64,000 nucleotides of DNA from Siphonodentalium dalli (Eukaryota; Mollusca; Scaphopoda; Gadilida; Siphonodentaliidae), in the NCBI GenBank assembly GCA_032622095.1, contig CP136065.1:95551343-95615342 (forward strand), written 5' to 3'. Position numbers and translations under genes: made by a program. Shown piece after piece: positions 1,323 to 63,257 of this stretch. Under the pieces are notes generated by a model, which made no database searches, had not been told where the DNA came from, and was given only the letters and a program-made list of their open reading frames with translations. Every line of letters starts with the position of its first letter. The first letter of the stretch is position 1.

Positions 1323-2930
1323 ACCCATTATCACACAGTCATTACATATATACATAAACACCACATATATAACAATATAGTGACCCACTGTATACATGTA
1401 CACCTGACCCATGACCACGAATGACCATACAGCCACGCGTCACAATGCAGGCACACTGGGTATACTAAACATGACACATAACCATATAGTCACTCCTTGT
1501 ATATCCATTCATCTCACCATTGGCCATAAGGTCATCCCCTGTATACCTATTCTCCAAACGCATGGTCAAATATACAATCAATATAAACATCAACACCACA
1601 AGACCATAAAGTCACTCCGGTATACATATGCACATCACCAATGGCCATATAGCCACTCGCTTCATACACATACGCTCACCCATGTTACCTGGTATACTCC
1701 TTCACCTGACCTATGGCCATATAGTCACCCCGTGTGTACCTATTCAAAACATTCATACACGATCATGGTCAATCCTTGTATACATATTCACCTCAACATT
1801 GGACATGTCAATACCTGTATCCCTATTTGTCACACCATAGCCGAATAGCCACTCAAGATATACTAATACACCCCAGCCATGACATGTCAGTAAAGTCACT
1901 CCATGTATGCATATGCACCTCATCCATGGCCATATAGCCACTCGCTATATACACATGTCCCTCGCCAATGACAATAAAGCAACACGTGTGTGTACTGGTA
2001 TAACCTACACATGACGATACCGACACGAGTCACCAAACAGAAACACCAGGTACATGTAACCATATCACCATTAACCATACGGTCACTACCTGTATACCTA
2101 TTCGACACTCATAGTCACATAACCACTCGATATACATATGCAGCCCACCCTAGACCATAAATTCACTCCAGGTATACATGTAAACCTCACGAATGGCCAT
2201 TCAGCCCTTCCAGATATACAAAAAACCCGCACAAACGACCACTCAAACAATCCATACTTGCATATACACCTCACGCATGACAATTCAGCAATTCACTGTA
2301 TAATCATACACGCCATCCATGATAATACAGCTAAGCCATATACACCCACCAATGATGATACATACACGAGATATATAAATATACATCCCACCCGTTACCA
2401 CAAGGACACTCACTATGTACCCACACGCTCGATAATGTCCACCCAGCTTACTCCAGGTATTCATATTCAATCATGACCGTACAGTCATTCCATGTATACC
2501 TATACACATTACCCGTAACCATAACATCACACACCCCATCCATGATCATACAGACAACGCATGTACATCCCACCCATGACCTTACAGTCACTCCATATAT
2601 ACATAATCAACACATATATGACCATGTAGCTATATACATACACCACACCAATGACCATACAGGCACACCGGGTGCACCCGTACTGGATATACACAATAAT
2701 ACACCATACAGTCACTCCATGCATACCGATTCACCTCACATCTGACCATGACCTCTCCCTGTATACCTAGATGCATCTTACCATGGACAACCCACTCATA
2801 ACCATATAGTCACTCATTGTATACCTACTCACATCAGTCATGACATACAATAACTCCCTGTATACCTATTCACCTCACATATGATCACAGAGTAACTCCC
2901 TGGCTACGATCTTAGCATCCACACTGTATC
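1323..2930 (-). repeat. FB1 internal satellite, reverse arm
   Basis: The same ~41-bp degenerate unit in reverse complement (blocks like GACCATACAGTCACTCC followed by TGTATACCTAT and CACCTCAC). This arm is about 1.6 kb against 0.65 kb for the forward arm, so the arms have expanded unequally. Confidence 0.75.
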
Positions 2931-19146: not shown

Positions 19147-19208
<62 letters not shown>

Positions 19209-19449: not shown

Positions 19450-19547
<98 letters not shown>

Positions 19548-29224: not shown

Positions 29225-30197
<973 letters not shown>

Positions 30198-30200
<3 letters not shown>

Positions 30201-30219
30201 CGATTTCACTGTATTTCAG
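30198..30219 (+). promoter_or_regulatory. splice acceptor of the GPCR coding exon
   Basis: A pyrimidine-rich run ends in CACTGTATTTCAG (AG at 30218-30219). The exon starts at 30220, three nucleotides before the ATG, so the start codon probably sits near the beginning of exon 2. Confidence 0.7.
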
Positions 30220-30222
30220 GAT

Positions 30223-40585: not shown

Positions 40586-41899
40586 ATGATTTGTGATCCC
40601 CCGACAGTAATAACATCGGCGGTAATTCTGAAATATGAGTCAGGGCGAAAGAAGACATTCCGACCAGTGCTCCCCTGTGAGGATGTCTTCAATTCGCTTA
40701 AAGCGGACGCTTTTCAGTGGGGTTTAAACTCCATGAAAACTTTGGTAAATTATTATCGGAAAACGGAATCAGAAATTGAAGTCAAGGTTCTTTCGGCTCT
40801 TTCTTCTAAAACCCTTGACTTCGACCGAGCACGTGACACGGCATTAAAATGGGGACTGAAGAATTTTGGCACCAAATTAACCAATGAGACAAAATCAAAG
40901 TTCTTGAGCATCTGTGGTAATCTTCAGTCCTCGATAGGTACACGAGTTGGCGTCCAAACTCATACAAACAAACGTGGTCGGTCACCCTCCCCTCCCCCAC
41001 TAATCGCTCGCCAGCTTCAATTTCAGGATAGTCCAGGCAGGGATCAGACAACGTCGTCGTCTGTGAGATCCACACCAAAACGCGTCAAAGCCACACCACA
41101 GCCACAGAGACCTGCACCAAAACCACGGACGTCACGCATATCCACTCCACCAAATACATCACTTCAAAATTCACCAGCCAAGAAAACAACACCACCAAAG
41201 CACATCTCTTCCAGCCCTCCTTCGCCTGTTGGTTCCATTGCTTCGATGACATCGCCAGCGATTTCAACATCATCACCATCGTATGCCGAGGTATTATCAA
41301 CATCACCTAAGGTATCCAAATTTTATAAATTTCGTCAACCTGGCCCTAAGAAGGATTGGTCCTTCCCTAAACAGATAAAAAACCCTGTTGTTATTTTAGG
41401 CTCTTCTAATGTGTCCCGGATCGATGTCGATCCTCCCAAAAATGTTTGTATTGCTTCTTACCCAGGTGGCAATTTAGGTCATTTCTGCAACATGGCCCAC
41501 AAACTGAAATCGAAGCCAGAAAAGACACCTCGACACGTCATCATCAACATTGGCATCAACAACCGAGAGGACTGGAAGACAGACAACGACAAAGGCAAAA
41601 CAGCAGGCACCACAGCTAAAAGCAGGGTAACTAACATGGTTAGTAATTTCCGAAAAGTTTTTCCTAATGCGACACTTCATTTTCAGGAAATAAATATCTC
41701 ATTCAGTTTAGATTCTAGGGACCAGGATGTTCTGCGTGCCATTAACAGCCAAGCTCGTCAGACACAGAACCTCAAGGTCATACAGGCAATACCCCCCCGC
41801 GACTTTCACGTGGAGAATGACAACATCCACTGGACATCACAGACGGCGGCGAAAATCTACCAAGGCTGGACCAACATCTTTAAAGGTCATTTAAACTAA
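40586..41899 (+). CDS. PLE ORF1: basic, Pro/Ser-rich protein with C-terminal SGNH-hydrolase-like domain
   Basis: 437 residues from the first ATG after an in-frame TAA at 40577. Residues 1-120 form an unrecognised, probably helical region. Residues 125-245 are a low-complexity Lys/Arg/Pro/Ser/Thr linker, suited to nucleic-acid binding. Residues ~265-437 resemble an SGNH/GDSL esterase: block I G272-S-S-N, block II-like PGG at 293-295, block III G323-I-N-N326, block V D412-N-I-H415. Hydrolase-type ORF1 domains are known in CR1-group LINEs; I do not know one as standard in PLEs. The last two sense codons form part of the slippery heptamer at 41890-41896. Activity is inferred from motifs only, and block I is GSSN, not GDSL. 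Confidence 0.8.
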   Translation: MICDPPTVITSAVILKYESGRKKTFRPVLPCEDVFNSLKADAFQWGLNSMKTLVNYYRKTESEIEVKVLSALSSKTLDFDRARDTALKWGLKNFGTKLTNETKSKFLSICGNLQSSIGTRVGVQTHTNKRGRSPSPPPLIARQLQFQDSPGRDQTTSSSVRSTPKRVKATPQPQRPAPKPRTSRISTPPNTSLQNSPAKKTTPPKHISSSPPSPVGSIASMTSPAISTSSPSYAEVLSTSPKVSKFYKFRQPGPKKDWSFPKQIKNPVVILGSSNVSRIDVDPPKNVCIASYPGGNLGHFCNMAHKLKSKPEKTPRHVIINIGINNREDWKTDNDKGKTAGTTAKSRVTNMVSNFRKVFPNATLHFQEINISFSLDSRDQDVLRAINSQARQTQNLKVIQAIPPRDFHVENDNIHWTSQTAAKIYQGWTNIFKGHLN

Positions 41900-45987: not shown

Positions 45988-45990
45988 TTA
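45988..45990 (+). other. FB1 target-site duplication TTA (left)
   Basis: TTA here and at 63255-63257 flank the FB1 insertion; the empty site in Helitron-like element A (near 45215-45220) has TTA once. Three-base TWA duplications are typical of PIF/Harbinger-type transposases; the assignment is inference. Confidence 0.75.
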
Positions 45991-47879
45991 TAGTTAGGGA
46001 GCCCGCATATGTTCTATTTACACTTTTGCGTACAAAAGGTTTGACCTCCTAAAGTTGGTACCAATAATGGAACATTCTGAAAAACTGATTTCTTAAGTTG
46101 CGCATTCCTGGGGTTTAGGGGCCGCTGAACCCCAAAAAGTGCCAAAAATCACTTCTATTTACACTTCCGCGTACATCGATGAATTTTGGTTTGATGATAC
46201 TCCTAAGTGTACTGATTAAGAAAACACAACTTAAGAAAGGGATTTTCCTGGGGTTTTCAGATAAGAAAGGGGGTCCCATGCTGAACCCCAAAACGTGACT
46301 TTTCACTTTTTTTTTATACTTTCGCGTACATCCATAATTTTTGGTCTCAAAGTACTTTGATATATACTAATTATAAAAACACAACTTAAGAAGCAACTTT
46401 TCCTGGGGTTTTGAGATAAGAAGGGGTGTCATCGTGTCACCCCTCAAAACTTAAAAAAATCGCTTTTATTTAAATGATTGCATTCGTCCAACATGTGTGT
46501 ATGTGCGTACACCCCTGGAACGTTGCACTATTACAACCAATACATCCCTAAATCGATACGATCAACTTAAGAAATATATATTCATGTCGTTTTCTGATAA
46601 TAACGAGACTTGTTACCCACACCCCCCCCCCCACAACCCGATCCATTTTCTAGAACTATAAGTGAGCCAGTTTTATGAAAATTATAGCGGGAAAATCTAG
46701 TAAAATGTATACAAATGTATATATTTTCGTGAAGCTAAGACATAATGACACTTTTTTGGGCCAAAATTGAAACTCACCATCCAAGATGGTCGCCAAAATG
46801 GCCGCCGGAAGTTGAAAATATGACATTTTTTCACAAATATCTTCTAGATCAATTCATGCTGTTTGGAACTGGTTGAGTAATGAAACTTTATTTTGTGTTT
46901 TGTATATTAACTGATCATTGGAGCAATTAAATATGCAATTATTGGGGTCATAACCCCTTCCGATCCCTCAAAAATTCGATTTTACAGAACGCAGTACAAA
47001 TTTTTTTTTAAATCACAATTGGGATTAGATAGTCATATTTCAACAAGAAATGAAAAGAACATTGTAATGTAAGTGAGACATGTCATTACCTATGAATATT
47101 CCAAATCTCTGGAACCATAAATCTTACCTTGGCTCAAAATGGCTGCGAAAATGGCCGCCAAAATATGGAAAATGGTAAATATTGCCCCAGGGTGTCCTGC
47201 AATCGCTTACAAGTTGTGGTTGATGTACACAATTGGCTAATCTGTTTTCTATACATTGCATACTAACATGTTTGATGCACCATTGATCATTTTTACTATT
47301 GTCACCACTGACATCACCAGAAATATTTTTCTCTCACAAACTTGACATAAATATCGGCAAAAATTCACTTTTCAGGGTTCGACCATTTGTTCAAGAAAAA
47401 TGTAACTATCTTTGGATTGAAAGGTGTCTATTGTTTTGGTCTATCTTAAATGTGTCACACTACGGTGTTTATAGACTAAATTGCTCAAGATGGCTTCCAA
47501 AATGGCAACCAAATTTGTAAAAAGTTAAAAATTAACATAACCCGAACACTATTCTCTGCATTATCCGAAAAAGGTGGCAAATTGTGACTCACTTGGTTAT
47601 TGTACGTGTTAGTTACAATGTAGTTAACTGACAACTACGTTCTATTATGTTTGTCCCAGTTCCGTATGGGGCATGACAAATTCATTTTAAAGTTGCAGTA
47701 TGGAATTTTTCGGAGAACCTCTTTTGTGATTCTGGCCATATTATTGAAAGGGAATGGGCAGAACTTTGAGACGGAACTGAGATGAACCATGATATGTGGG
47801 TATTCTGGCCCATTATGATAAAAATTTATCAACTGGATACAGGGTGGAAGCCAAGATGGCAGCCAGGGAGTTTAATACT

Positions 47880-48520
47880 CTATGATCATATATGAGGATA
47901 ATAGGTATACACGGAGTTATTGTATGGTCATGAATAATGTGTGGGTATAAAGGGAGTGCCCTGTTGGTAACGGTGGGACATATATTTATATATGTTGTGG
48001 ATGTGTTATCATTGGTGGTGTATGTGGAGTAAATGTATTATCATGGATGGCGTGTATGAGTATGGCAAGTATGGAACTTATGAGTGGTCGTATGTGCGGA
48101 TATTGGTATATCTGGAAGGGATCACCATTGGTGATGTGCATATGTATACCTGGATTGACTCTATGGTCATGTGTATGGCGAATAGGTATACATGTAGTGG
48201 CTGTATGGTCCATGGTGAGGTGAATATGTATACAATGAGTGACTGTATGATCGTGAATGTAGTGAATATGTATACATAGAGTGACTATATGGTCATGTGT
48301 CGGGTGTAGGTGTATACCTGGTGTTCATGCATGGTGACTCGTGGCTGTATCGTCATTTGTGGTATGTACTGTATAACCAAGTATGTATGGTCAGGTGTAC
48401 TAGTACATGTACGTGTATAAAGTGGGTGACTGTGTTGTCATTTGTGTGGTGTTTATGTACATATGGAGTGACTGGGGTAATGTGTGGGTTGTACATGTGT
48501 ACATTGGGCGGCTATCGCTT
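47880..48520 (+). repeat. FB1 satellite, forward arm (complete copy)
   Basis: Collinear with 640-1245; small unit-level indels only. Confidence 0.75.
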
Positions 48521-48589
48521 TCCACAATAACTCAAGGATATGTTTAATAATCAATAGAGAGGTCATGTCATATCGTGGAAAGCCACCCA

Positions 48590-50238
48590 TTATCACACAG
48601 TCATTACATATATACATACACACCACATACATAACAATATAGTGACCCACTGTATACATGTACACCTGACCCATGACCACCCATTATCACACAGTCATTA
48701 CATATATACATACGCACCACATACATAACAATATAGTGACCCACTGTATACATGTACACCTGACCCATGACCACGGATGACCATACAGCCACCCGTCACA
48801 TCGGGTATACTCCTAAACATGACCCATAACCATATAGTCACTCCTTGTATACCCATTCATCTCACCATTGGCCATAAGGTCATCATCCCTGTATACCTAT
48901 TATCCAAACTCATGGTCAAATATACAATCAATATATACATCAACACCACAACAATGACCATAAAGTCACTCCGATATACATATGCACATCACCAATGGCC
49001 ATATAGCCACTCGCTTCATACACATACCATCACCCATGTTACCTGGTATACTCCTTCACCTGACCTATGGCCATATAGTCACCCCATTCATACACGATCA
49101 TGGTCAATCCTTGGATACATATTCACCTCAACATTGGCCATGTCAATCCCTGTATCCCTATTTGTCACACCATAGCCGAATAGCCACTCAAGATATACTA
49201 ATACACCACAGCCATGTCAGTATAGTCACTCCATGTATGCATATGCACCTCATCCATGGCCATATAGCCACTCGCTATATACACGTATCCCTCGCCCATG
49301 ACAATAAAGCAACACGTGTGTGTACTGGTATAACCTACACACGACGATACCGACACTAGTCACCAAACAGGAACACCAGGTACATGTATACTCATACGCC
49401 TGTCACTCCCTGTATAGATGTTCATTACATTTATGATCATACAGTCACTACTTGTATACCTACATGTAATCATCTCACCATTAACCATACGGTCACTACC
49501 TGTATACCTATTCGACACTCATAGTCATATAATCACTCGATATACATATGCAGCCCACCCTAGACCATAAATTCACTCCAGGTATACATGTAAACCTCAC
49601 TAATGGCCATTCAGCCCTTCCAGATATACAAAAAACCCACACATACGACCACTCAAACAATCCATACTTGCATACACACCTCACAAATGACAATTCAGCA
49701 ATTTACTGTATAATCATACATGATAATACAGATAAGCCATATACACCCACCAATGATAATACATCCACGAGATATATAAATAAATATCCCACCCGTTACC
49801 ACAAGGACACTTCATATGTACCCACACGCTCGATAATGTCCACCCAGCTTACTCCAGGTATTCATATTCAATCATGACCGTACAGTCATTCCATGTATAC
49901 CTATACACATTACCCGTAACCATAAAATCACTACCTATTTATCCACACACCGCATCCATGATTATACAGACAACGCATGTACATCCCACCCATGACCTTA
50001 CAGTCACTCCATATATACATACTCAACACATAGATGACCATGTAGCTATATCCATACACCACACCAATAACCATACAGGCACACCGGGTGCACCCGTACT
50101 GGATATACACAACCATACACCATAGTCACTCCATACATACCGATTCACCTCACATCTGACCATGACCTCTCCCTGTATACCTAGATGCATCTTACCATGG
50201 ACAACCCACTCATAACCATATAGTCACTCATTGTATAC
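48590..50238 (-). repeat. FB1 satellite, reverse arm (complete copy, part 1)
   Basis: Collinear with 1325-2824. It contains a local ~115-bp tandem duplication at about 48585-48775 (the CCCATTATCACACAGTCATT block occurs twice) that the copy at the window start lacks. Confidence 0.75.
50233..50238 (+). other. palindrome target-site duplication GTATAC (left)
   Basis: GTATAC precedes the element here and follows it at 61486-61491; the unoccupied FB1 copies have it once (2819-2824, 11944-11949). A 7-bp reading (TGTATAC) is also possible because T precedes both copies. Confidence 0.9.
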
Positions 50239-50505
50239 AGAAGAAGATAGAGCGTCTCGTTCGCGCCACATCTAAAAATAGAATCTTTGGGGTCTAAAAT
50301 TGGTTGTACTAAAATATTCCCAAAATATCAAAACCCAAAAAAAAATTTCAAAACTTCAAAAATTTATTTTTTCCAAAAAATTTCAAAACCCTAAAATTAA
50401 TTTTTTCCACAAAAAAATTCAAAACCCCCAAATTTCAAAAAAAGAAAAAATTTCAAAACCCTCAAAATTATTTCTCTAAAAAAAAGTTTAAATAAAAAAT
50501 TTATA
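50239..50505 (+). repeat. palindrome terminal block, left (T)
   Basis: A GC-richer tip (AGCGTCTCGTTCGCGCC) is followed by TCTAAAAATAGAATCTTTGG, GGTTGTACTAAAATATTCCC and TTTCAAAACTTC-like runs. The same order recurs in the same orientation beside the palindrome centre (55646-55820). The mirrored block is 61222-61485. Confidence 0.85.
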
Positions 50506-51628
50506 ACGAGTTTTTTCGGTTTCTGATAATCTCGATATTAAAAAATATCGAATGTTAAATTATTTGCGCGTAATATCTTTCGTTATTTTTTTGTTCAACC
50601 AATGTTTCAATGTATTTATTAATCGATGTTTAGAAATATCTTTATACCAATTATATGTGTATGGACAGTCGCTGTAATGTTGGACATTGTGACCAACGGT
50701 ATGAATGCATACATTCCAGTGTTTAACGGACGCAGTTCATATAATTGTCATACCTGAAAATAGACACCATTACTTTTTACATAAATAATAAAGAGCGTTT
50801 ATTCTTTACTTATCTCTATATGAAGTTATTGAGTATATGACAGGCGTGTATTTTCGTCAATTATTGGAAGTATTGAAATGTACTATGTTGAATCCCTAAC
50901 GGTCGAAAATTGTAAGGCGAAATTACAACCCCCCAGAATGAACTGTCATATTGAATGAGTGATGATTTAATCTCAGCCATTTTTACATGGAACATGAGCG
51001 ATGTACACGCAATCACACACGCCACATTGGTGTTAACAATGTGTCTTTCACACCTTTGCTTTACCAAATGAATTCTATTATTTCCCCGGTCACAGCTATA
51101 TGGTATTCAGAAAACATATCGATTTGAGCAGAAATAGTTGTTTAACGGGTTAGTATCAATTAAGGTTGATAAACTGTGTCATTCACACGATAATTAGTTA
51201 GCCAAAAACATGCATACATATTACGTCAGGTCGTGAGACACTCAATTATACAAATTGCTTTGACTGTGGAATGTAAGGACCTTTAACTTATTTATCGATC
51301 TAAAGGGACACTCATTATGAATGAATGTTAACAATACAAGCGCACGAATGAAGAGCGTTGAACATATACGAAATTACTACACGAATGAATTGAACCTTGA
51401 AATTTATATTTTCATATCTTACCAACAACAGCTACAGACATAATCATAGTATTATACTGTCTTGCATGTACACACGCTATGACATCATTAAAGGCGGACA
51501 ATCCACTCACGGTGTGACAACAGATACGGACATAGGCATGGTGTTATACAGTCTTCTATGTACCCACGCTATGACACCATTAACGTACATTGGATGTTAG
51601 GTATATGACTCTTGAGTATGTACCGATC
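50506..51628 (-). other. unique part of left arm, no confident gene
   Basis: A 68-codon frame at 50861-51067 (-) lacks an ATG (it opens on TTG) and any family signature. 51312-51585 is a diverged direct duplicate of 53886-54172. The mirrored region is 60099-61221. Confidence 0.5.
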
Positions 51629-53004
51629 AATGAGCAAATGAGCAAAAAACTGAGCAAATGAGCAAGAAAATGAGCAAATGAGCAATAAAAATGAGCAAAT
51701 GAGCATAAAAATGAGCAAATGAGCAAGAAAATGAGCAAATGAGCAAGAAAATGAGCAAATGAGCAATAAAAATGAGCAAATGAGCAAGAAAATGAGCAAA
51801 TGAGCAAGAAAATGAGCAAATGAGCATAAAAATGAGCAAATGAGCAAAAAAATGAGCAAATGAGCAATAAAAATGAGCAAATGAGCAAGAAAATGAGCAA
51901 ATGAGCAAGAAAATGAGCAAATGAGCAATAAAAATGAGCAAATGAGCAAAAAAATGAGCAAATGAGCAAATAAATGAGCAAATGAGCAAGAAAATGAGCA
52001 AATGAGCAATAAAAATGAGCAAATGAGCAAATAAATGAGCAAATGAGCAATAAAAATGAGCAAATGAGCAAAAAAATGAGCAAATGAGCAATAAAAATGA
52101 GCAAATGAGCAAATAAATGAGCAAATGAGCAATAAAAATGAGCAAATGAGCAAAAAACTGAGCAAATGAGCAAGAAAATGAGCAAATGAGCAATAAAAAT
52201 GAGCAAATGAGCATAAAAATGAGCAAATGAGCAAGAAAATGAGCAAATGAGCAAGAAAATGAGCAAATGAGCAATAAAAATGAGCAAATGAGCAAGAAAA
52301 TGAGCAAATGAGCAAGAAAATGAGCAAATGAGCATAAAAATGAGCAAATGAGCAAAAAAATGAGCAAATGAGCAATAAAAATGAGCAAATGAGCAAGAAA
52401 ATGAGCAAATGAGCAAGAAAATGAGCAAATGAGCAATAAAAATGAGCAAATGAGCAAAAAAATGAGCAAATGAGCAAGGAAATGAGCAAATGAGCAATAA
52501 AAATGAGCAAATGAGCAAATAAATGAGCAAATGAGCAAGAAAATGAGCAAATGAGCAATAAAAATGAGCAAATGAGCAAATAATTGAGCAAATGAGCAAT
52601 AAAAATGAGCAAATGAGCAAATAAATGAGCAAATGAGCAAAAAAATGAGCAAATGAGCAAATAAATGAGCAAATGAGCAATAAAAATGAGCAAATGAGCA
52701 AAAAAATGAGCAAATGAGCAATAAAAATGAGCAAATGAGCAAAAAAATGAGCAAATGAGCAAATAAATGAGCAAATGAGCAATAAAAATGAGCAAATGAG
52801 CAAAAAAATGAGCAAATGAGCAATAAAAATGAGCAAATGAGCAAATAAATGAGCAAATGAGCAAAAAAATGAGCAAATGAGCAAATAAATGAGCAAATGA
52901 GCAAGAAAATGAGCAAATGAGCAAATAAATGAGCAAATGAGCAAAAAAATGAGCAATAAAATGAGCAAATGAGCAATAAAAATGAGCAAATGAGCAAAAA
53001 AATG
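51629..53004 (+). repeat. ATGAGCAA minisatellite, left arm
   Basis: Units of about 19-21 bp (AAATGAGCAAATGAGCAA plus a variable AT spacer), about 68 copies, 1,376 bp. Frames of 455-514 codons on the minus strand (Leu/Ile/Phe/Cys/Ser/Ala/His) are open because neither unit nor spacer contains a stop in that direction; three overlapping frames are open at once, which marks them as repeat translation. Confidence 0.95.
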
Positions 53005-54290
53005 GGCATACCTGTATGTAGGCCTACCAGTGGATGAATAGTCTGCCGGAGAAGTACTGTGTAGACAGGTCTTGTCAGTAAGAGAGTCAGACGATAAGTG
53101 AAGGCTCGGCTATTAAAACATAGTAATGCGATAGCGAACATCAAACGAGTCTGCGCACGCATATCTGTCAAAGGATACGATGGCAGTCATTGGTCAATTT
53201 ATCCCCGGTGTCAGCTCAGTACCCAATCGGGACGAAGCCGAAGGTCAACTCATTTTTTTTTTGCTCATTATAGTACGTCACTTGGACATTTTATCAGTTT
53301 ATCACGTGATCACTAAATGTGGCAATCGGGTATCCACCGATGCCTGCAATTTATTATTTATAATAATTGGACTCATTGATCTCACGTAAATAATACTCTT
53401 AGTTGTTCCAATAAAATAGTTATCAAATTCGATCACCAATAGATTTGACTGTGGAATATAATGACCTTTAACTTATTTATCGATCTATGTTAGAACATGG
53501 TCTTAACAAAAAACTTGACCATAACAAAAATTACCTTACATTTATGCATGAATCTAATTAGACCATACGTAAATATTGTCAGCTTATCGTCTGATGAGCA
53601 AATCCGATGTTTATCAAAAATAGTACAACTTCCAGTTGGTAATTACTCTTACGAATGAAGAGCGTTGAACATATACGAAATTACTACACGAATGAACTGA
53701 AATTTATATTTTCACATCTTACCAACAACAGATACAGACATAGTCATAGTGTTATACTATCTTACATGTACCCATGCTATGACATCATTCGAAGGGGCAA
53801 TACACTCAAGGAGTTAAAGTGACACGAAACAAGGGACGTGATGTAATATTGGTGTTTGAATCTTAAAGGAACACAAGACACTCTAAAGGGACACTCATTA
53901 TGAATGAATGTTAACAATACAAGCGCACGAATGAAGAGCGTTGAACATATACGAAATTACTACACGAATGAATTGAACCTTGAAATTTATATTTGACATC
54001 TTACCAACAACAGCTACATGCATTATCATAGGGTTATACTGTCTTGCATATACACACGCTATGACATCATTAAAGGCGGACAATCCACTCACGGTGTGAC
54101 AACAGATACAGACATAGGCATAGTGTTATACAGTCTTCTATGTACCAATGCTATGACATAATTAAAGGGGGATAATACACGCACGGTGTGGAATGTTAAA
54201 GTGACACGCGGTAAGGGACGTGATGTAATATTGGTGAAACCCCCTCCCCACTTATAGATATATAACGAAGACGAGAATAACATGTTGATG
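53005..54290 (-). other. unique and internally duplicated part of left arm
   Basis: Contains two further copies of the GAAGAGCGTTGAACATATAC block (53655-53830 and 53925-54172). Mirrored at 57499-58784. No gene is recognised. Confidence 0.5.
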
Positions 54291-54293
54291 AAG

Positions 54294-54299
54294 TTTATT
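54294..54299 (-). promoter_or_regulatory. polyadenylation hexamer for the left-arm gene block
   Basis: AATAAA on the minus strand, a few nucleotides after the stop of the zinc-finger ORF. Confidence 0.6.
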
Positions 54300-54304
54300 G
54301 AAAT

Positions 54305-54874
54305 TTAATCATTGTCTGAATCTTCGACCGTTAGATTTACTTCTAAGAGTTTCTTGAATTTTCTCATCGCTTCATCTGCAGCCCATTCATTATTATATCC
54401 GTGTTTGGTCAGTTTGACCATTTTCTTCATGATCATGGTATGTATGCGTGATGTTTTCAATCGATACTGGTATTCTATTAATCGTCTATAACTTTTGAGA
54501 AACAGAGCAAACTCTGTGTCGATGGTATCCTCTTTTCCCGACATGCTCTCATCTCCCGAAATGCTCTCTTCTTCTTTCACATCATTGGTGACGCGTTTCA
54601 TCATACTTTTGAATGTGTCCATCTCGTTGACACATCGCGCAGCTTTCTTAAGACCGAATACCGTTCTACTACCGACGCCATTACCATCTTCTGAATCTGA
54701 TAGCGTTCCACGTTCATCTTCATCTGAATCTAGAACCGCTTCGTCAGATTCATCGGTATCTTCTCCGAAGAGAGTTGGTTTTGTCTCGGACATAACTCCG
54801 TGTTTAATCTGTTTATGTCTTTGTAGATTGTAGTTCGTCGATAAAATAATGCCACATAAATCACACCCGTGCAT
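54305..54874 (-). CDS. C2H2 zinc-finger acidic protein, left-arm copy
   Basis: Exact mirror of 56915-57484, 189 residues. Residues 4-25 form one C2H2 finger (C4, C7, H20, H25; spacing 2-12-4). Residues ~36-65 are strongly acidic (Asp/Glu/Ser), ~95-120 acidic again, and ~125-180 form a likely helical, Lys/Arg-rich region. ATG start, overlapping the end of the preceding ORF by 14 nt. The function is unknown; a DNA- or capsid-associated role is conceivable in a Polinton-like context. Keeping a 189-codon frame identical in both arms suggests function or recent duplication. Confidence 0.6.
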   Translation of the reverse strand: MHGCDLCGIILSTNYNLQRHKQIKHGVMSETKPTLFGEDTDESDEAVLDSDEDERGTLSDSEDGNGVGSRTVFGLKKAARCVNEMDTFKSMMKRVTNDVKEEESISGDESMSGKEDTIDTEFALFLKSYRRLIEYQYRLKTSRIHTMIMKKMVKLTKHGYNNEWAADEAMRKFKKLLEVNLTVEDSDND

Positions 54875-55055
54875 TATCGCGAATTATTGGAAGAACCATC
54901 ACTCTTATAAGTAGCGATAAAAAGAGAGAATAAGGTGCGGTATACAACCGTCGCTCTAAGAGTACGTTCGTCCCGGGGCTAGGGTATAGATATTTGACCG
55001 CCGGTGATTCAATTAATGCCAATTTATCAGTATGGTACTCTATGTATTCATTCAT
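54861..55055 (-). CDS. small ORF of 64 codons, left-arm copy
   Basis: Mirror of 56734-56928. It begins with ATG 7 nt after the preceding stop and overlaps the zinc-finger ORF. No domain is recognised; the C-terminal half is hydrophobic (SLFLSLLIRVMVLP). It could be a real micro-protein or a remnant of a longer gene. Confidence 0.4.
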   Translation of the reverse strand: MNEYIEYHTDKLALIESPAVKYLYPSPGTNVLLERRLYTAPYSLFLSLLIRVMVLPIIRDNARV

Positions 55056-55062
55056 GATTTGG

Positions 55063-55389
55063 CTAATCGTATGACACTGCTCTTTTCATTTTCTTCTTAT
55101 TATTATTAGACAAACCTCCATCAGACACTCTCTTGTTGGTTTGTTTGGACGCTTTACGTGTGTTTGTCAACTTATTTGCTGCAACTTCAGCCTTAGCCAT
55201 TTCAATCGCTTGAGCGATGGGTGTCACCACGTTAATAAGTGGTTTTAGAACGTCTTCTTCACTATCACTAGTTTTAGTTTTGTCAATAAAGTATCGACCC
55301 TGATTATCTGGCATTAACTTCCCATCAACCATATCTCTGAAATGTTTTCTCCACATTTCAATATCTGCTGGAATATACGGGATCGACAT
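55063..55389 (-). CDS. small basic-tailed protein of 108 residues, left-arm copy
   Basis: Mirror of 56400-56726. Starts MSIPYIPADIEMWRKHF; middle is mixed, C-terminus is Lys/Arg/Asn-rich (residues ~75-105). Short proteins of this general kind occur in Polinton/adintovirus-type elements, but I cannot name a family with confidence. Confidence 0.55.
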   Translation of the reverse strand: MSIPYIPADIEMWRKHFRDMVDGKLMPDNQGRYFIDKTKTSDSEEDVLKPLINVVTPIAQAIEMAKAEVAANKLTNTRKASKQTNKRVSDGGLSNNNKKKMKRAVSYD

Positions 55390-55449
55390 GTTTCTTCAAA
55401 ATGTACAAGTCACTCTTTTTTCTGCATTTTATTTTAGAAAGTTTATCGC

Positions 55450-55459
55450 CTCTTATAAA
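55450..55459 (-). promoter_or_regulatory. TATA-like box before the left-arm gene block
   Basis: TTTATAAGAG on the minus strand, about 60 nt upstream of the ATG at 55389; mirrored at 56330-56339. Confidence 0.4.
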
Positions 55460-55645
55460 AATCGATTATTGGCCATGAATGCCAAATGCACCATGATAGT
55501 TATCGATGTCAATAATGCGTTTCGTTGAGATCTTGATTGAGTATGCACCAATCAATGAGCAAATAAATGAGCAAGCAGGATGTTATGTCGCTTGGTGGCG
55601 GAGGTAGCATCACCAAATTACCCTCTGGGGACCTCATTCTGCCAT

Positions 55646-55820
55646 CTAAAAATAGAATCTTTGGGTCTAAAATTGGTTGTACTAAAATATTCCCAAAAAC
55701 CCAAAACTTCAAAAATTTCAAAAAACTTCAAAAATTTCAAAAAATTTCAAAAACTTCAAAAATTTCAAAAACTTCAAAAATTTCAAAAAACTTCAAAAAT
55801 TTCAAAAACTTCAAAAATAA
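55646..55820 (+). repeat. internal copy of the terminal block beside the centre (T')
   Basis: TCTAAAAATAGAATCTTTGG, then GGTTGTACTAAAATATTCCC, then repeated ACTTCAAAAATTTCAAAA, in the same orientation as the left terminus. It therefore makes each arm end in direct copies of one block. Mirrored at 55969-56143. Confidence 0.85.
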
Positions 55821-55822
55821 GA

Positions 55823-55932
55823 CCCCGGCGGCGGAGGCGGCGGCGGCGCCGCCGCCGGTATTTTACTGCGGGGTCCGCCGGCGGCGGACCCCGGCGGCGG
55901 CGGCGGAGGCACCGCCGCCGCAGTAAAATACC

Positions 55933-55963
<31 letters not shown>

Positions 55964-55966
55964 GGG
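55823..55966. repeat. GC-rich nested-hairpin centre of the palindrome
   Basis: About 144 bp of mostly GGC/CCG repeats between AAGACCCC and GGGGTCTT. Inner arms GGTATTTTACTGCGG and CCGCAGTAAAATACC enclose an asymmetric loop with its own hairpin (GGTCCGCC / GGCGGACC near 55875-55893). Base composition is opposite to the AT-rich arms. Proline/alanine/arginine-rich frames here are repeat translation. Confidence 0.9.
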
Positions 55967-55968
55967 TC

Positions 55969-56143
55969 TTATTTTTGAAGTTTTTGAAATTTTTGAAGTT
56001 TTTTGAAATTTTTGAAGTTTTTGAAATTTTTGAAGTTTTTGAAATTTTTTGAAATTTTTGAAGTTTTTTGAAATTTTTGAAGTTTTGGGTTTTTGGGAAT
56101 ATTTTAGTACAACCAATTTTAGACCCAAAGATTCTATTTTTAG
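55969..56143 (-). repeat. internal copy of the terminal block beside the centre (mirror)
   Basis: Reverse complement of 55646-55820. Confidence 0.85.
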
Positions 56144-56329
56144 ATGGCAGAATGAGGTCCCCAGAGGGTAATTTGGTGATGCTACCTCCGCCACCAAGCG
56201 ACATAACATCCTGCTTGCTCATTTATTTGCTCATTGATTGGTGCATACTCAATCAAGATCTCAACGAAACGCATTATTGACATCGATAACTATCATGGTG
56301 CATTTGGCATTCATGGCCAATAATCGATT

Positions 56330-56339
56330 TTTATAAGAG
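56330..56339 (+). promoter_or_regulatory. TATA-like box before the right-arm gene block
   Basis: TTTATAAGAG about 60 nt upstream of the ATG at 56400. Confidence 0.4.
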
Positions 56340-56399
56340 GCGATAAACTTTCTAAAATAAAATGCAGAAAAAAGAGTGACTTGTACATTTTGAAGAAAC

Positions 56400-56726
56400 A
56401 TGTCGATCCCGTATATTCCAGCAGATATTGAAATGTGGAGAAAACATTTCAGAGATATGGTTGATGGGAAGTTAATGCCAGATAATCAGGGTCGATACTT
56501 TATTGACAAAACTAAAACTAGTGATAGTGAAGAAGACGTTCTAAAACCACTTATTAACGTGGTGACACCCATCGCTCAAGCGATTGAAATGGCTAAGGCT
56601 GAAGTTGCAGCAAATAAGTTGACAAACACACGTAAAGCGTCCAAACAAACCAACAAGAGAGTGTCTGATGGAGGTTTGTCTAATAATAATAAGAAGAAAA
56701 TGAAAAGAGCAGTGTCATACGATTAG
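56400..56726 (+). CDS. small basic-tailed protein of 108 residues, right-arm copy
   Basis: First of three tightly packed ORFs. ATG start. Residues 1-35 contain W13 and aromatic/charged residues, 40-48 are acidic (SDSEED), ~50-72 likely helical and Ala-rich, ~75-105 basic with KKKMKR. The basic tail suggests nucleic-acid binding. No named family is recognised. Identical to the left-arm copy at 55063-55389. Confidence 0.55.
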   Translation: MSIPYIPADIEMWRKHFRDMVDGKLMPDNQGRYFIDKTKTSDSEEDVLKPLINVVTPIAQAIEMAKAEVAANKLTNTRKASKQTNKRVSDGGLSNNNKKKMKRAVSYD

Positions 56727-56733
56727 CCAAATC

Positions 56734-56928
56734 ATGAATGAATACATAGAGTACCATACTGATAAATTGGCATTAATTGAATCACCGGCGGTCAAATATC
56801 TATACCCTAGCCCCGGGACGAACGTACTCTTAGAGCGACGGTTGTATACCGCACCTTATTCTCTCTTTTTATCGCTACTTATAAGAGTGATGGTTCTTCC
56901 AATAATTCGCGATAATGCACGGGTGTGA
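56734..56928 (+). CDS. small ORF of 64 codons, right-arm copy
   Basis: ATG 7 nt after the previous stop; its end overlaps the zinc-finger ORF by 14 nt, giving a virus-like compact arrangement. No homology is recognised. Confidence 0.4.
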   Translation: MNEYIEYHTDKLALIESPAVKYLYPSPGTNVLLERRLYTAPYSLFLSLLIRVMVLPIIRDNARV

Positions 56929-57484
56929 TTTATGTGGCATTATTTTATCGACGAACTACAATCTACAAAGACATAAACAGATTAAACACGGAGTTATGTC
57001 CGAGACAAAACCAACTCTCTTCGGAGAAGATACCGATGAATCTGACGAAGCGGTTCTAGATTCAGATGAAGATGAACGTGGAACGCTATCAGATTCAGAA
57101 GATGGTAATGGCGTCGGTAGTAGAACGGTATTCGGTCTTAAGAAAGCTGCGCGATGTGTCAACGAGATGGACACATTCAAAAGTATGATGAAACGCGTCA
57201 CCAATGATGTGAAAGAAGAAGAGAGCATTTCGGGAGATGAGAGCATGTCGGGAAAAGAGGATACCATCGACACAGAGTTTGCTCTGTTTCTCAAAAGTTA
57301 TAGACGATTAATAGAATACCAGTATCGATTGAAAACATCACGCATACATACCATGATCATGAAGAAAATGGTCAAACTGACCAAACACGGATATAATAAT
57401 GAATGGGCTGCAGATGAAGCGATGAGAAAATTCAAGAAACTCTTAGAAGTAAATCTAACGGTCGAAGATTCAGACAATGATTAA
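56915..57484 (+). CDS. C2H2 zinc-finger acidic protein, right-arm copy
   Basis: 189 residues; single C2H2 finger at residues 4-25, then acidic low-complexity stretches and a basic helical C-terminal third ending in VEDSDND. Identical in frame to 54305-54874. AATAAA follows 5 nt after the stop, so the polyadenylation signal fits this gene closely. The role is not known. Confidence 0.6.
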   Translation: MHGCDLCGIILSTNYNLQRHKQIKHGVMSETKPTLFGEDTDESDEAVLDSDEDERGTLSDSEDGNGVGSRTVFGLKKAARCVNEMDTFKSMMKRVTNDVKEEESISGDESMSGKEDTIDTEFALFLKSYRRLIEYQYRLKTSRIHTMIMKKMVKLTKHGYNNEWAADEAMRKFKKLLEVNLTVEDSDND

Positions 57485-57489
57485 ATTTC

Positions 57490-57495
57490 AATAAA
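57490..57495 (+). promoter_or_regulatory. polyadenylation hexamer for the right-arm gene block
   Basis: AATAAA starting 5 nt past the zinc-finger ORF stop; mirrored on the other arm. Confidence 0.6.
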
Positions 57496-57498
57496 CTT

Positions 57499-58784
57499 CA
57501 TCAACATGTTATTCTCGTCTTCGTTATATATCTATAAGTGGGGAGGGGGTTTCACCAATATTACATCACGTCCCTTACCGCGTGTCACTTTAACATTCCA
57601 CACCGTGCGTGTATTATCCCCCTTTAATTATGTCATAGCATTGGTACATAGAAGACTGTATAACACTATGCCTATGTCTGTATCTGTTGTCACACCGTGA
57701 GTGGATTGTCCGCCTTTAATGATGTCATAGCGTGTGTATATGCAAGACAGTATAACCCTATGATAATGCATGTAGCTGTTGTTGGTAAGATGTGAAATAT
57801 AAATTTCAAGGTTCAATTCATTCGTGTAGTAATTTCGTATATGTTCAACGCTCTTCATTCGTGCGCTTGTATTGTTAACATTCATTCATAATGAGTGTCC
57901 CTTTAGAGTGTCTTGTGTTCCTTTAAGATTCAAACACCAATATTACATCACGTCCCTTGTTTCGTGTCACTTTAACTCCTTGAGTGTATTGCCCCTTCGA
58001 ATGATGTCATAGCATGGGTACATGTAAGATAGTATAACACTATGACTATGTCTGTATCTGTTGTTGGTAAGATGTGAAAATATAAATTTCAGTTCATTCG
58101 TGTAGTAATTTCGTATATGTTCAACGCTCTTCATTCGTAAGAGTAATTACCAACTGGAAGTTGTACTATTTTTGATAAACATCGGATTTGCTCATCAGAC
58201 GATAAGCTGACAATATTTACGTATGGTCTAATTAGATTCATGCATAAATGTAAGGTAATTTTTGTTATGGTCAAGTTTTTTGTTAAGACCATGTTCTAAC
58301 ATAGATCGATAAATAAGTTAAAGGTCATTATATTCCACAGTCAAATCTATTGGTGATCGAATTTGATAACTATTTTATTGGAACAACTAAGAGTATTATT
58401 TACGTGAGATCAATGAGTCCAATTATTATAAATAATAAATTGCAGGCATCGGTGGATACCCGATTGCCACATTTAGTGATCACGTGATAAACTGATAAAA
58501 TGTCCAAGTGACGTACTATAATGAGCAAAAAAAAAATGAGTTGACCTTCGGCTTCGTCCCGATTGGGTACTGAGCTGACACCGGGGATAAATTGACCAAT
58601 GACTGCCATCGTATCCTTTGACAGATATGCGTGCGCAGACTCGTTTGATGTTCGCTATCGCATTACTATGTTTTAATAGCCGAGCCTTCACTTATCGTCT
58701 GACTCTCTTACTGACAAGACCTGTCTACACAGTACTTCTCCGGCAGACTATTCATCCACTGGTAGGCCTACATACAGGTATGCC
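57499..58784 (+). other. unique and internally duplicated part of right arm
   Basis: Reverse complement of 53005-54290. No gene is recognised. Confidence 0.5.
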
Positions 58785-60098
58785 CATTTTTTTGCTCATT
58801 TGCTCATTTTTATTGCTCATTTGCTCATTTTATTGCTCATTTTTTTGCTCATTTGCTCATTTATTTGCTCATTTGCTCATTTTCTTGCTCATTTGCTCAT
58901 TTATTTGCTCATTTGCTCATTTTTTTGCTCATTTGCTCATTTATTTGCTCATTTGCTCATTTTTATTGCTCATTTGCTCATTTTTTTGCTCATTTGCTCA
59001 TTTTTATTGCTCATTTGCTCATTTATTTGCTCATTTGCTCATTTTTTTGCTCATTTGCTCATTTATTTGCTCATTTGCTCATTTTTATTGCTCATTTGCT
59101 CATTTTTTTGCTCATTTGCTCATTTTTATTGCTCATTTGCTCATTTATTTGCTCATTTGCTCATTTTTATTGCTCATTTGCTCATTTTCTTGCTCATTTG
59201 CTCATTTATTTGCTCATTTGCTCATTTTTATTGCTCATTTGCTCATTTTCTTGCTCATTTGCTCATTTTTTTGCTCATTTGCTCATTTTTATTGCTCATT
59301 TGCTCATTTTCTTGCTCATTTGCTCATTTTCTTGCTCATTTGCTCATTTTTATTGCTCATTTGCTCATTTTTTTGCTCATTTGCTCATTTTTATGCTCAT
59401 TTGCTCATTTTCTTGCTCATTTGCTCATTTTCTTGCTCATTTGCTCATTTTTATTGCTCATTTGCTCATTTTCTTGCTCATTTGCTCATTTTCTTGCTCA
59501 TTTGCTCATTTTTATGCTCATTTGCTCATTTTTATTGCTCATTTGCTCATTTTCTTGCTCATTTGCTCATTTTTTTGCTCATTTGCTCATTTTTTTGCTC
59601 ATTTGCTCATTTATTTGCTCATTTGCTCATTTTTATTGCTCATTTGCTCATTTTTTTGCTCATTTGCTCATTTTTATTGCTCATTTGCTCATTTATTTGC
59701 TCATTTGCTCATTTTTATTGCTCATTTGCTCATTTTCTTGCTCATTTGCTCATTTATTTGCTCATTTGCTCATTTTTTTGCTCATTTGCTCATTTTTATT
59801 GCTCATTTGCTCATTTTCTTGCTCATTTGCTCATTTTCTTGCTCATTTGCTCATTTTTATTGCTCATTTGCTCATTTTTTTGCTCATTTGCTCATTTTTA
59901 TGCTCATTTGCTCATTTTCTTGCTCATTTGCTCATTTTCTTGCTCATTTGCTCATTTTTTTTGCTCATTTGCTCATTTTCTTGCTCATTTGCTCATTTTC
60001 TTGCTCATTTGCTCATTTTTATGCTCATTTGCTCATTTTTATTGCTCATTTGCTCATTTTCTTGCTCATTTGCTCAGTTTTTTGCTCATTTGCTCATT
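58785..60098 (-). repeat. ATGAGCAA minisatellite, right arm
   Basis: Mirror of the left array but 62 bp shorter (1,314 bp), from loss of whole units plus local rearrangement. The 415-509-codon frames on the plus strand are repeat translation. Confidence 0.95.
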
Positions 60099-61221
60099 GA
60101 TCGGTACATACTCAAGAGTCATATACCTAACATCCAATGTACGTTAATGGTGTCATAACGTGGGTACATAGAAGACTGTATAACACCATGCCTATGTCCG
60201 TATCTGTTGTCACACCGTGAGTGGATTGTCCGCCTTTAATGATGTCATAGCGTGTGTACATGCAAGACAGTATAATACTATGATTATGTCTGTAGCTGTT
60301 GTTGGTAAGATTTGAAAATATAAATTTCAAGGTTCAATTCATTCGTGTAGTAATTTCGTATATGTTCAACGCTCTTCATTCGTGCGCTTGTATTGTTAAC
60401 ATTCATTCATAATGAGTGTCCCTTTAGATCGATAAATAAGTTAAAGGTCCTTACATTCCACAGTCAAAGCAATTTGTATAATTGAGTGTCTCACGACCTG
60501 ACGTAATATGTATGCATGTTTTTGGCTAACTAATTATCGTGTGAATGACACAGTTTATCAACCTTAATTGATACTAACCCGTTAAACAACTATTTCTGCT
60601 CAAATCGATATGTTTTCTGAATACCATATAGCTGTGACCGGGGAAATAATAGAATTCATTTGGTAAAGCAAAGGTGTGAAAGACACATTGTTAACACCAA
60701 TGTGGCGTGTGTGATTGCGTGTACATCGCTCATGTTCCATGTAAAAATGGCTGAGATTAAATCATCACTCATTCAATATGACAGTTCATTCTGGGGGGTT
60801 GTAATTTCGCCTTACAATTTTCGACCGTTAGGGATTCAACATAGTACATTTCAATACTTCCAATAATTGACGAAAATACACGCCTGTCATATACTCAATA
60901 ACTTCATATAGAGATAAGTAAAGAATAAACGCTCTTTATTATTTATGTAAAAAGTAATGGTGTCTATTTTCAGGTATGACAATTATATGAACTGCGTCCG
61001 TTAAACACTGGAATGTATGCATTCATACCGTTGGTCACAATGTCCAACATTACAGCGACTGTCCATACACATATAATTGGTATAAAGATATTTCTAAACA
61101 TCGATTAATAAATACATTGAAACATTGGTTGAACAAAAAAATAACGAAAGATATTACGCGCAAATAATTTAACATTCGATATTTTTTAATATCGAGATTA
61201 TCAGAAACCGAAAAAACTCGT
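60099..61221 (+). other. unique part of right arm, no confident gene
   Basis: Mirror of 50506-51628. The 68-codon frame at 60660-60866 opens on TTG, not ATG. Confidence 0.5.
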
Positions 61222-61485
61222 TATAAATTTTTTATTTAAACTTTTTTTTAGAGAAATAATTTTGAGGGTTTTGAAATTTTTTCTTTTTTTGAAATTTGGG
61301 GGTTTTGAATTTTTTTGTGGAAAAAATTAATTTTAGGGTTTTGAAATTTTTTGGAAAAAATAAATTTTTGAAGTTTTGAAATTTTTTTTTGGGTTTTGAT
61401 ATTTTGGGAATATTTTAGTACAACCAATTTTAGACCCCAAAGATTCTATTTTTAGATGTGGCGCGAACGAGACGCTCTATCTTCT
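61222..61485 (-). repeat. palindrome terminal block, right
   Basis: Reverse complement of 50239-50505, ending GACGCTCTATCTTCT. Confidence 0.85.
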
Positions 61486-61491
61486 GTATAC
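61486..61491 (+). other. palindrome target-site duplication GTATAC (right)
   Basis: See the left copy at 50233-50238. FB1 sequence resumes directly (CTACTCACATCAGTC), matching 2825 onward. Confidence 0.9.
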
Positions 61492-61579
61492 CTACTCACA
61501 TCAGTCATGACATACAATAACTCCCTGTATACCTATTCACCTCACATATGATCACAGAGTAACTCCCTGGCTACGATCT

Positions 61580-63254
61580 TGGCACCCACACTGTATCCTG
61601 TTGACATTTTTTTTTATCATAATGAACCAGAATAGCCAAAGATTATGGTCCATCTCAGTTCTGTCTCAAAGTTCTGCCCATTTCCTTTCAATAAATATGG
61701 CCAAAATCACAAAAGAGGTTCTCGGCAAAATTACATACTTTAAAATGAATTTGTCATGCCCCATACGGAACTGGGACAACTGGGAATAGAACATGTAGTT
61801 GTCAGTTAATTAACTAACACGTATAATAACCAAGTGAGTCACAATTTGCTACCTTTTCGGATAATGCAGAGAATGTTCGGGATATATGTAAAAAAACTGA
61901 ATTTTTACCAATATTTATGTCATTTTTTTTTTAGAGAAAAGTCCAATATTTTTGACGATGTCAATGGTGAAAATAGTAACAATTAACCATGGTGCATCAG
62001 ACATGTTAGTATTCAATGCATAGAATGCAGAATAGCCCATTTTATACATCAACACAACTTGTAAGCAATTGCAAGACATGCTGGTATAATATTTACCATT
62101 TTCCATATTTTGGTGGCCATATTGGCAGCCATTTTGAGCCAAAGTAAGAATTTTGGTTCCAGTGTTTGGAATATTCATAGGTAATGATATGCCTCACTTA
62201 CATTACAAAGTTCTGTTCATTTCTTGTTGAAATATGAATAGAATCCCAATTGTAATTTTTTGTGAAATTTTATACCGCATTCATTACAATCGAATATTTG
62301 AGGGATCGGAAGGGGTTAGGACCCCAATAATTGCATATTTAATTGCTCCAATGATCAGTTAATATACAAAACACAAAATAAAGTTTCATTACTCTACCAG
62401 TTCCAAACAGCATGAATTGATCTAGAAGATAATTGTGAAAAAATGTCATATTTTCAACTTCCGGCGGCCATTTTGGTGGCCATCTTGGATGGTGAGTTTC
62501 AATTTTGGCCCAAAAAAGTGTCATTATGTCTTAGCTTCACGAAAATATATACATTTGTATACATTTTACAAGATTTTCCCGCTATAATTTTCATAAAACT
62601 GGCTCACTTATAGTTCTAGAAAATGGATCGGGTTGGGGGGGGGGGGGGGTAACAAGTCTCGTTCTTATCAGAAAACGACATCAATATATATTTCTTAAGT
62701 TGATCGTATCGATTTAGGGATGTATTGGTTGTAATAGTGCAACGTTCCAGGGGTGTACGCACATACACACACGTTGGACGAATGCAATCATGTAAATAAA
62801 AGTGATTTTTTACGTTTTGGGGGGTGACCCGATGACCCCCTTCTTATCTTAAAACCCCAGGAAAAGTTGCTTCTTAAGTTGTGTTTTTATAATTAGTATA
62901 TATCAAAGTACTTTGAGACCAAAAATTATGGATGTACGCGAAAGTGTAAAAAAAAAGTGAAAAATCACGTTTTGGGGTTCAGCATGGGACCCCCTTTCTT
63001 ATCTGAAAACCCCAGGAAAATCCCTTTCTTAAGTTGTGTTTTCTTAATCATCAAACCAAAAATCATCGATGTACGCGGTAGTGTAAATAGAAGTGATTTT
63101 TGGCACTTTTTGGGGTTCAGCGGCCCCTAAACCCCAGGAATGCGCAACTTAAGAAATCGGTTTTTCAGAGTGTTCCATTATTGGTACCAACTTTAGGGGG
63201 TCAAACCTTTTGTACGCAAAAGTGTAAATGGAACATATGCGGGCTCCCCAACTA
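61580..63254 (+). repeat. FB1 right terminal repeat
   Basis: Collinear with 2930-4698 except for a ~140-bp deletion near 61900 that removes part of the block at 3225-3375. Reverse complement of 45991-47875. Confidence 0.85.
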
Positions 63255-63257
63255 TTA
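63255..63257 (+). other. FB1 target-site duplication TTA (right)
   Basis: Pairs with 45988-45990; Helitron-like element B continues with ACGTTGAAACTTG just inside and after it. Confidence 0.75.

What the first reader, a model, noticed from the sequence alone, without database searches (positions are those of the whole stretch)
50239..61485. 11.2-kb near-perfect palindrome integrated with a Polinton-type 6-bp target duplication
Both arms match base for base over ~2.9 kb on each side of the centre and, apart from a minisatellite length difference of 62 bp, out to the tips. The element is bounded by GTATAC on both sides, and two unoccupied paralogous sites in this same window (2819-2824 and 11944-11949) give the pre-insertion sequence. 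AG...CT ends plus a 6-bp TSD are the Polinton/Maverick signature, but the core genes are absent and the whole element is a head-to-head dimer. Protein-primed or hairpin-ended linear replication could create such a dimer, and an integrase in trans could insert it. I know of no described family with this design.
Basis: partly seen in the sequence, partly recalled or inferred. Interest (0 to 1): 0.92.

Follow-up and report, generated by a model that had tools for sequence, protein, structure and literature searches.

The report
Integrated palindromic two-gene mobile element
An 11.2-kb stretch of what looks like an animal genome is a mobile element made of two mirror-image halves, each with two small genes of unknown kind, inserted cleanly with a short duplicated target; its tips resemble those of Polinton/Maverick viruses and its centre can fold like a parvovirus end, so it may be a stray replication dimer that was integrated.

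Summary
The palindrome is real. Arms 50239-55894 and 55895-61485 are mirror images: outside the minisatellite and the GC-rich centre they differ by 3 substitutions and one 3-bp indel in about 4.2 kb. Joining the flanks with one GTATAC reproduces, without a gap at the joint, a paralogous empty site (892/932 identical), so this is one insertion, not an assembly fold-back. Each arm carries two ORFs (189 aa with a sub-threshold C2H2 finger; 108 aa), 35 and 68 bp downstream of the arm's only two TATAAGAG boxes; neither has a detected relative. I add two features. The tips are AGA triplets, three left and two right, like the jumping-back end motifs of Mavericks. The centre can fold into a stem with two side hairpins, the layout of an AAV terminal repeat. 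Best reading (0.40): a non-autonomous snap-back dimer of a linear, probably protein-primed replicon, inserted by a Polinton-type integrase in trans. Against it: no integrase, PolB or capsid domain was found, no second copy could be examined, and the duplication could be 7, 6, 4 or 2 bp. A foldback cut-and-paste transposon is an equal rival (0.40).

The parts
50233..50238 (.). left copy of target duplication GTATAC (7-bp reading: 50232-50238)
50239..55894 (+). left arm of the palindrome; tip AGAAGAAGATAG, i.e. (AGA)3
50269..50365 (+). subterminal repeat T, 88% identical direct copy at 55643-55737
51299..51583 (+). internal direct repeat, 95% identical to 53882-54165, related to 53651-53808
51629..53008 (+). 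minisatellite, ~20/61/81-bp period (AATGAGCAAATGAGCAAAAA), left arm; mirrored at 58781-60098
54305..54874 (-). ORF P1, 189 aa, N-terminal sub-threshold C2H2 finger then acidic stretch; TATAAGAG at 54909, AATAAA at 54299
55063..55389 (-). ORF P2, 108 aa; TATAAGAG at 55457
55643..55737 (+). inner direct copy of subterminal repeat T
55815..55980 (.). GC-rich centre: stem (55857-55869 with 55920-55932 as innermost part) carrying side hairpins 55870-55892 and 55893-55919
55895..61485 (-). right arm of the palindrome (reverse complement of the left); tip has (AGA)2
56400..56726 (+). identical right-arm copy of P2
56915..57484 (+). identical right-arm copy of P1
61486..61491 (.). right copy of target duplication GTATAC
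2819..2824 (.). paralogous empty site (same again at 11944-11949 in a tandem duplicate)

Best explanation
A non-autonomous mobile element that is an integrated head-to-head (snap-back) dimer of a linear replicon of about 5.6 kb. Shown: mirror-image arms, a single clean insertion with a duplicated GTATAC, triplet-repeat tips of unequal number, two ORFs per arm with a shared upstream box, and a centre able to fold into a two-armed hairpin. Inferred: the replicon is copied from its outer tips by a protein-primed polymerase (jumping back on AGA repeats). A displaced single strand folds at the central hairpin and primes its own complement. The next round opens it into a linear dimer with an origin at each end, and a Polinton-type integrase acting in trans inserts the dimer with a 6-bp duplication. 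P1 and P2 would be passenger or regulatory genes of the parent virus or of the satellite.
For: Palindrome and arm differences. Empty site and exact duplication. (AGA)3 against (AGA)2 at the tips is the only indel between the arms outside the minisatellite and the centre; Mavericks have end motifs (AGT)2 or (AG)3 and 6-bp TSDs, and these motif repeats are held to allow jumping back in protein-primed replication (PMC8097293, passages read). Central two-armed fold: -102.3 kcal/mol against a shuffle mean of -57.2 (inflated by the palindrome itself). For the 50 inner bases alone, 2 of 5000 dinucleotide shuffles fold as well and 36 of 5000 give two helices of 9 bp or more (base shuffles 9 and 18 of 5000). 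In 1000 order-2 Markov sequences of 53009-55830 none had an ATG ORF of 189 aa or more, the longest being 184. TATAAGAG occurs twice in the left arm, 0.22 expected, both times just upstream of an ORF start. Self-complementary snap-back genomes able to replicate, with dimer forms, are described for AAV (PMC8235507, passages).
Against: No integrase, PolB, ATPase or capsid domain in six frames of the scanned parts of the left arm. One copy only. Duplication length open (7, 6, 4 or 2 bp). About 4.1 kb between tip and P1 holds no annotated gene but a minisatellite, unlike a compact viral end. Subterminal repeat T occurs twice per arm in the same orientation, which the model does not explain. Two-armed folding of a CGG-rich stretch is not very rare (36 of 5000). 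P2's length is unremarkable: 106 of 1000 simulated sequences had an ORF of at least 108 aa, and a 103-aa ORF runs antisense to P1 (54522-54833). P1 and P2 have no detected relative, so nothing ties the coding part to Polintons.
Confidence: 0.4

Rival explanations
1. A foldback-type (long-TIR) cut-and-paste DNA transposon, non-autonomous, whose inverted repeats have grown by aberrant gap repair until only a short GC-rich middle remains; the arms stay identical by gene conversion.
For: Its arm layout (outer flanking part, tandem-repeat block, inner part, small middle) is that of the foldback element Tetris, whose TIRs are built of three such domains (PMC4079207, passages). The window holds other long-inverted-repeat elements: 25446-29160 and the host repeat 45990-63255. 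The junction allows a 7-bp duplication, which is the length I recall for Galileo of the P superfamily.
Against: Tetris has 8-10 bp TSDs and its complete copies lack conserved ORFs; here the duplication is at most 7 bp, and 7 bp makes the ends unequal by one base; each arm carries two ORFs. Unequal triplet tips and the two-armed centre are not expected. No transposase domain in the scanned frames.
Confidence: 0.4
2. A Ginger2-like or other integrase-type transposon with a 4-bp TATA duplication and CAG..CTG ends.
For: Ginger2 prefers RTATAY targets and makes 4-bp TSDs (PMC2836005, passages); GTATAC fits exactly.
Against: Ginger2 termini follow TGTNR; here the end would be CAGAA. No transposase domain found.
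Confidence: 0.08
3. Integrated dimer replicative form of a parvovirus-like (rolling-hairpin) element, the central hairpin being its telomere.
For: Two-armed hairpin at the dimer joint; half-element size of 5.6 kb against 4.7 kb for AAV2; AAV ITRs fold into a double hairpin that primes replication (PMC11575299, passages).
Against: No parvoviral NS1 or capsid domain in the scanned frames; the outer tips fold no better than shuffles; a clean short duplication is not how parvoviruses are known to integrate (recalled).
Confidence: 0.07
4. Assembly artefact (fold-back read or duplicated contig end).
For: Long near-perfect inverted duplications are a known artefact of long reads (recalled).
Against: The right arm runs into the correct right flank, and the flanks together equal the empty site plus exactly one GTATAC; the arms differ by private changes and a 62-bp length difference.
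Confidence: 0.04

Closest known systems
Polinton/Maverick (polintoviruses, adintoviruses)
   Same: AG..CT ends with short terminal tandem repeats and a 6-bp target duplication (one of the readings).
   Different: 11.2 kb palindrome throughout; none of the core genes found; the TIR would be the whole half-element (intact vertebrate Maverick TIRs 46-1447 bp, PMC8097293, passages).
Foldback elements (Tetris read in passages; FB and Galileo recalled or mentioned there)
   Same: Very long inverted repeats with an internal tandem-repeat block and a small middle.
   Different: Duplication at most 7 bp rather than 8-10; ORFs in both arms; triplet tips; two-armed GC hairpin centre.
AAV/parvovirus terminal hairpin and snap-back genomes
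   Same: Centre can fold into a stem with two side hairpins; self-complementary architecture.
   Different: No NS1 or capsid domain found; outer ends not hairpins; integrated with a short duplication.
Bidnaviridae (PMC4061559, passages)
   Same: A proposed meeting of parvovirus parts with Polinton PolB and ends.
   Different: Their inverted terminal repeats do not form parvovirus-type hairpins, and they are viruses with PolB and capsid genes; none was found here.
Hairpin and palindromic derivatives of protein-primed linear DNAs (killer-plasmid hairpin forms, symmetric adenovirus defectives; recalled, not described in the titles and abstract starts of the 15 of 755 papers listed)
   Same: Palindromic linear dimers with a protein-primed origin at both ends.
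   Different: Those are extrachromosomal; I recall none integrated with a target duplication.
Ginger2/Tdd
   Same: RTATAY target fits GTATAC.
   Different: TGTNR termini not met; no transposase found.

Membership tests
Polinton/Maverick | 6-bp target site duplication | tested here: inconclusive
   GTATAC duplicated, but 7-, 4- and 2-bp readings fit the same DNA
Polinton/Maverick | ends beginning AG with short terminal tandem repeats | tested here: met
   AGAAGAAGA left, AGAAGA right, if the 6-bp reading is taken; motif class from PMC8097293; the exact AGA unit is not among those in the passages seen
Polinton/Maverick | core genes: protein-primed PolB, integrase, ATPase, protease, capsid | tested here: not met
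   No such Pfam match in six frames of 50239-51628 and 53009-55830; minisatellite, centre and right arm not scanned
Foldback transposon (Tetris-like) | long TIRs with internal tandem repeats | tested here: met
Foldback transposon (Tetris-like) | 8-10 bp target duplication | tested here: not met
   at most 7 bp; comparison
Ginger2/Tdd | TGTNR termini | tested here: not met
   with a TATA duplication the end is CAGAAG
Ginger2/Tdd | RTATAY target, 4-bp TSD | tested here: inconclusive
   GTATAC fits; duplication length open
Parvovirus | terminal hairpin with two side arms | tested here: inconclusive
   possible at the centre by folding, not at the outer tips
Parvovirus | NS1 and capsid genes | tested here: not met
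   same scanned parts
Any of these | multiple copies with consistent ends and duplication | not testable with these tools
   The genome search did not complete; no second copy in the window

The most novel reading that the evidence does not exclude
A family of satellite elements that combines two replication strategies: protein-primed, Polinton-type outer ends used for origin and integrase recognition, and an evolved parvovirus-like two-armed hairpin at the centre that makes the strand fold back and copy itself. The palindromic dimer would then be the normal transposing form, carrying two copies of its own genes and parasitising a Polinton or adintovirus helper.
Probability: 0.15. Interest if true: 0.88.

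Novelty: new variant of a known kind. Interest (0 to 1): 0.62.

Why it matters
If the Polinton reading holds, this would be genomic evidence that Polinton-like viruses produce snap-back defective genomes as AAV does (and adenoviruses, recalled), and that their integrase can fix such a genome in a chromosome. Unequal terminal triplets would be a trace of jumping-back initiation, a step expected for Mavericks by analogy (PMC8097293). It would also give a route by which foldback elements can arise at once from a replication error rather than by slow growth of their repeats.

Tried and rejected
Homologues of P1: none among 67 word-sharing candidates from the 5.8-billion-protein set; viral contigs, 14 pattern stretches, none confirmed; genome contigs, 35 stretches, none confirmed; PDB sequences, none. 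P2: 1 candidate, not significant; viral contigs, 13 stretches, none confirmed; PDB, none; P2 was not run on genome contigs. These absences are weak: a host receptor used as a control found only two weak matches among 8000 scored candidates (a capped set), one named from Lineus longissimus, which suggests that the host lineage is poorly covered.

DNA patterns from the subterminal repeat, the centre and the minisatellite gave 0 exact matches in viral contigs. Rfam at gathering thresholds: no match. tRNA: none. A weak Pfam match of P2 to Enc34_ssDNA-bd (E 0.055, below its cut-off) and a weak unnamed PHROG (E 0.025) were set aside as probable chance.

Considered and rejected: the two empty sites as independent witnesses (same tandem duplicate); a 2-bp TA target, because both sides carry TATA; assembly fold-back, because of the flanks. 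Literature searches: none of the titles and abstract starts in the (capped) listings describes a palindromic integrated Polinton; beyond the listings I saw only passages of PMC8097293, PMC2836005, PMC4061559, PMC8235507, PMC11575299, PMC4079207 and PMC4028283. Most subscription papers are not in the library.

Full report
Setting. The window looks like an animal genome: a single-exon rhodopsin-type receptor at 30187-31833 and a reverse transcriptase with a GIY-YIG domain at 41884-44262 (the name Penelope-like is recalled from that domain pair). GC is 33-50% per 2 kb; there are no tRNA or Rfam matches. The species is not known to me.

The palindrome. The axis is at 55894.5. The arms are about 5.6 kb each and align end to end. 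Outside the minisatellite and the last 60 bp before the axis (1390 + 2826 bp) there are three substitutions (51415, 51569, 53995) and one indel. Within the minisatellite there are five substitutions, two single-base indels and one 62-bp indel. So the arms are very similar but have private differences, as expected of two real DNA stretches.

The insertion. Joining the flanks with one GTATAC matches 2314-3228 at 892 of 932 positions, with no gap at the joint, and 11439-12353 with the same score. These two sites are copies within one tandem duplication and count once. The palindrome thus entered as a unit, and the right arm leads into the proper right flank, which a fold-back artefact would not do. 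GTATAC is a palindrome and a frequent word (61 copies). The junctions share 7 bp, TGTATAC. The same DNA can be read as a 6-bp duplication with AG..CT ends, a 7-bp one with ends unequal by one base, a 4-bp TATA duplication with CAG..CTG ends, or a 2-bp AT duplication with ACAG..CTGT ends. One copy cannot decide this.

The tips. Left AGAAGAAGATAG, right AGAAGATAG: three against two AGA triplets. This is the only indel between the arms outside the minisatellite and the centre, although the arm has many homopolymer runs that did not change. Vertebrate Mavericks carry (AGT)2 or (AG)3 end motifs and 6-bp duplications, and the motif repeats are held to permit jumping back in protein-primed initiation (PMC8097293, passages). 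The likeness is in kind; AGA is not among the motifs in the passages seen.

The centre. Bases 55815-55980 fold into a long stem with two side hairpins, 55870-55892 and 55893-55919. A palindrome always folds, so the test that counts is on the 50 inner bases between the stem halves: 9 of 5000 base shuffles and 2 of 5000 dinucleotide shuffles fold as well; 18 of 5000 and 36 of 5000 give two helices of at least 9 bp. The arrangement is that of the AAV terminal repeat, described as palindromic blocks A, B and C that form a double hairpin and prime replication (PMC11575299, passages). It is suggestive, not proof, since CGG-rich DNA folds easily.

The genes. Each arm has P1 (189 aa) and P2 (108 aa), both pointing away from the axis; the right-arm copies are identical. 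None of 1000 order-2 Markov sequences of 53009-55830 had an ATG ORF of 189 aa (longest 184), but 106 of 1000 had one of 108 aa or more, so P2's length alone is not evidence. A 103-aa ORF lies antisense to P1, and five shorter ones (53-69 aa) were listed, open frames of the minisatellite left out. TATAAGAG occurs exactly twice in the left arm, on the coding strand, 35 bp before P1 and 68 bp before P2, against 0.22 expected per arm on both strands. It also occurs elsewhere in the window (7109, 7155, 16226, 16272, 36623, 63816). An AATAAA lies just behind P1 (54299); none was seen directly behind P2. P1 has a C2H2 finger below Pfam's cut-off. No relatives were found, but the protein set seems to cover this host poorly.

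Other anatomy. A subterminal repeat T of about 97 bp recurs near the centre in the same orientation, 88% identical. This is far more diverged than the two arms are from each other, so T was probably doubled before the dimer formed (inference). Related direct repeats (51299, 53651, 53882) lie on both sides of the minisatellite. No part of the arm outside the minisatellite matches the rest of the window.

Mechanism. The reading I prefer is a snap-back dimer of a linear replicon: copied from its outer ends, folded back at the central hairpin, then integrated in trans by a Polinton-type integrase. Steps shown: dimer, insertion, duplication, unequal tips, hairpin potential. Steps inferred: protein priming, self-priming at the hairpin, helper integrase. 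AAV gives a documented parallel for self-complementary genomes that replicate (PMC8235507, passages). The main rival is a foldback transposon, which shares the arm layout (PMC4079207, passages); Tetris has longer duplications and no conserved ORFs, but a 7-bp duplication is open here. I give the two the same weight (0.40 each) because no autonomous relative and no second copy could be examined.

Membership. It fails the Polinton gene-content test in the scanned parts and so is not filed as a Polinton; it may work with one. It fails the Tetris-like TSD length, the Ginger2 termini and the parvovirus gene content. Novelty is rated as a new variant of a known kind because both leading readings start from known mobile elements.

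Noticed in passing
window 25446-29160: Another foldback-like element: 350-bp inverted ends 91% identical, enclosing ~195-bp tandem repeats in opposite orientations.
   Followed up: partly
window 45990-63255 (without the insert): The sequence that took the insertion is itself a long-inverted-repeat element with GGGAGCCCGC near its ends, possibly with a TTA duplication (read by eye), with a GTATAC-rich stretch of ~42-bp repeats in its middle; partial copies at 1-695, 2811-4698 and 11936-13814.
   Followed up: partly
window 2080-10416 and 11205-19516: A tandem duplication of more than 8 kb, 99.1% identical.
   Followed up: no
window 40580-44262: Penelope-like element (name recalled): reverse transcriptase plus GIY-YIG ORF preceded by an ORF with a sub-threshold GDSL-like match.
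   Followed up: no
window 51569-53186: The minisatellite stays open in all three reverse frames for about 480-520 codons, encoding a repetitive hydrophobic peptide; probably a by-product of a repeat without stops.
   Followed up: no
window 20373-21038: Open G-rich imperfect repeats of ~16 and 71 bp.
   Followed up: no
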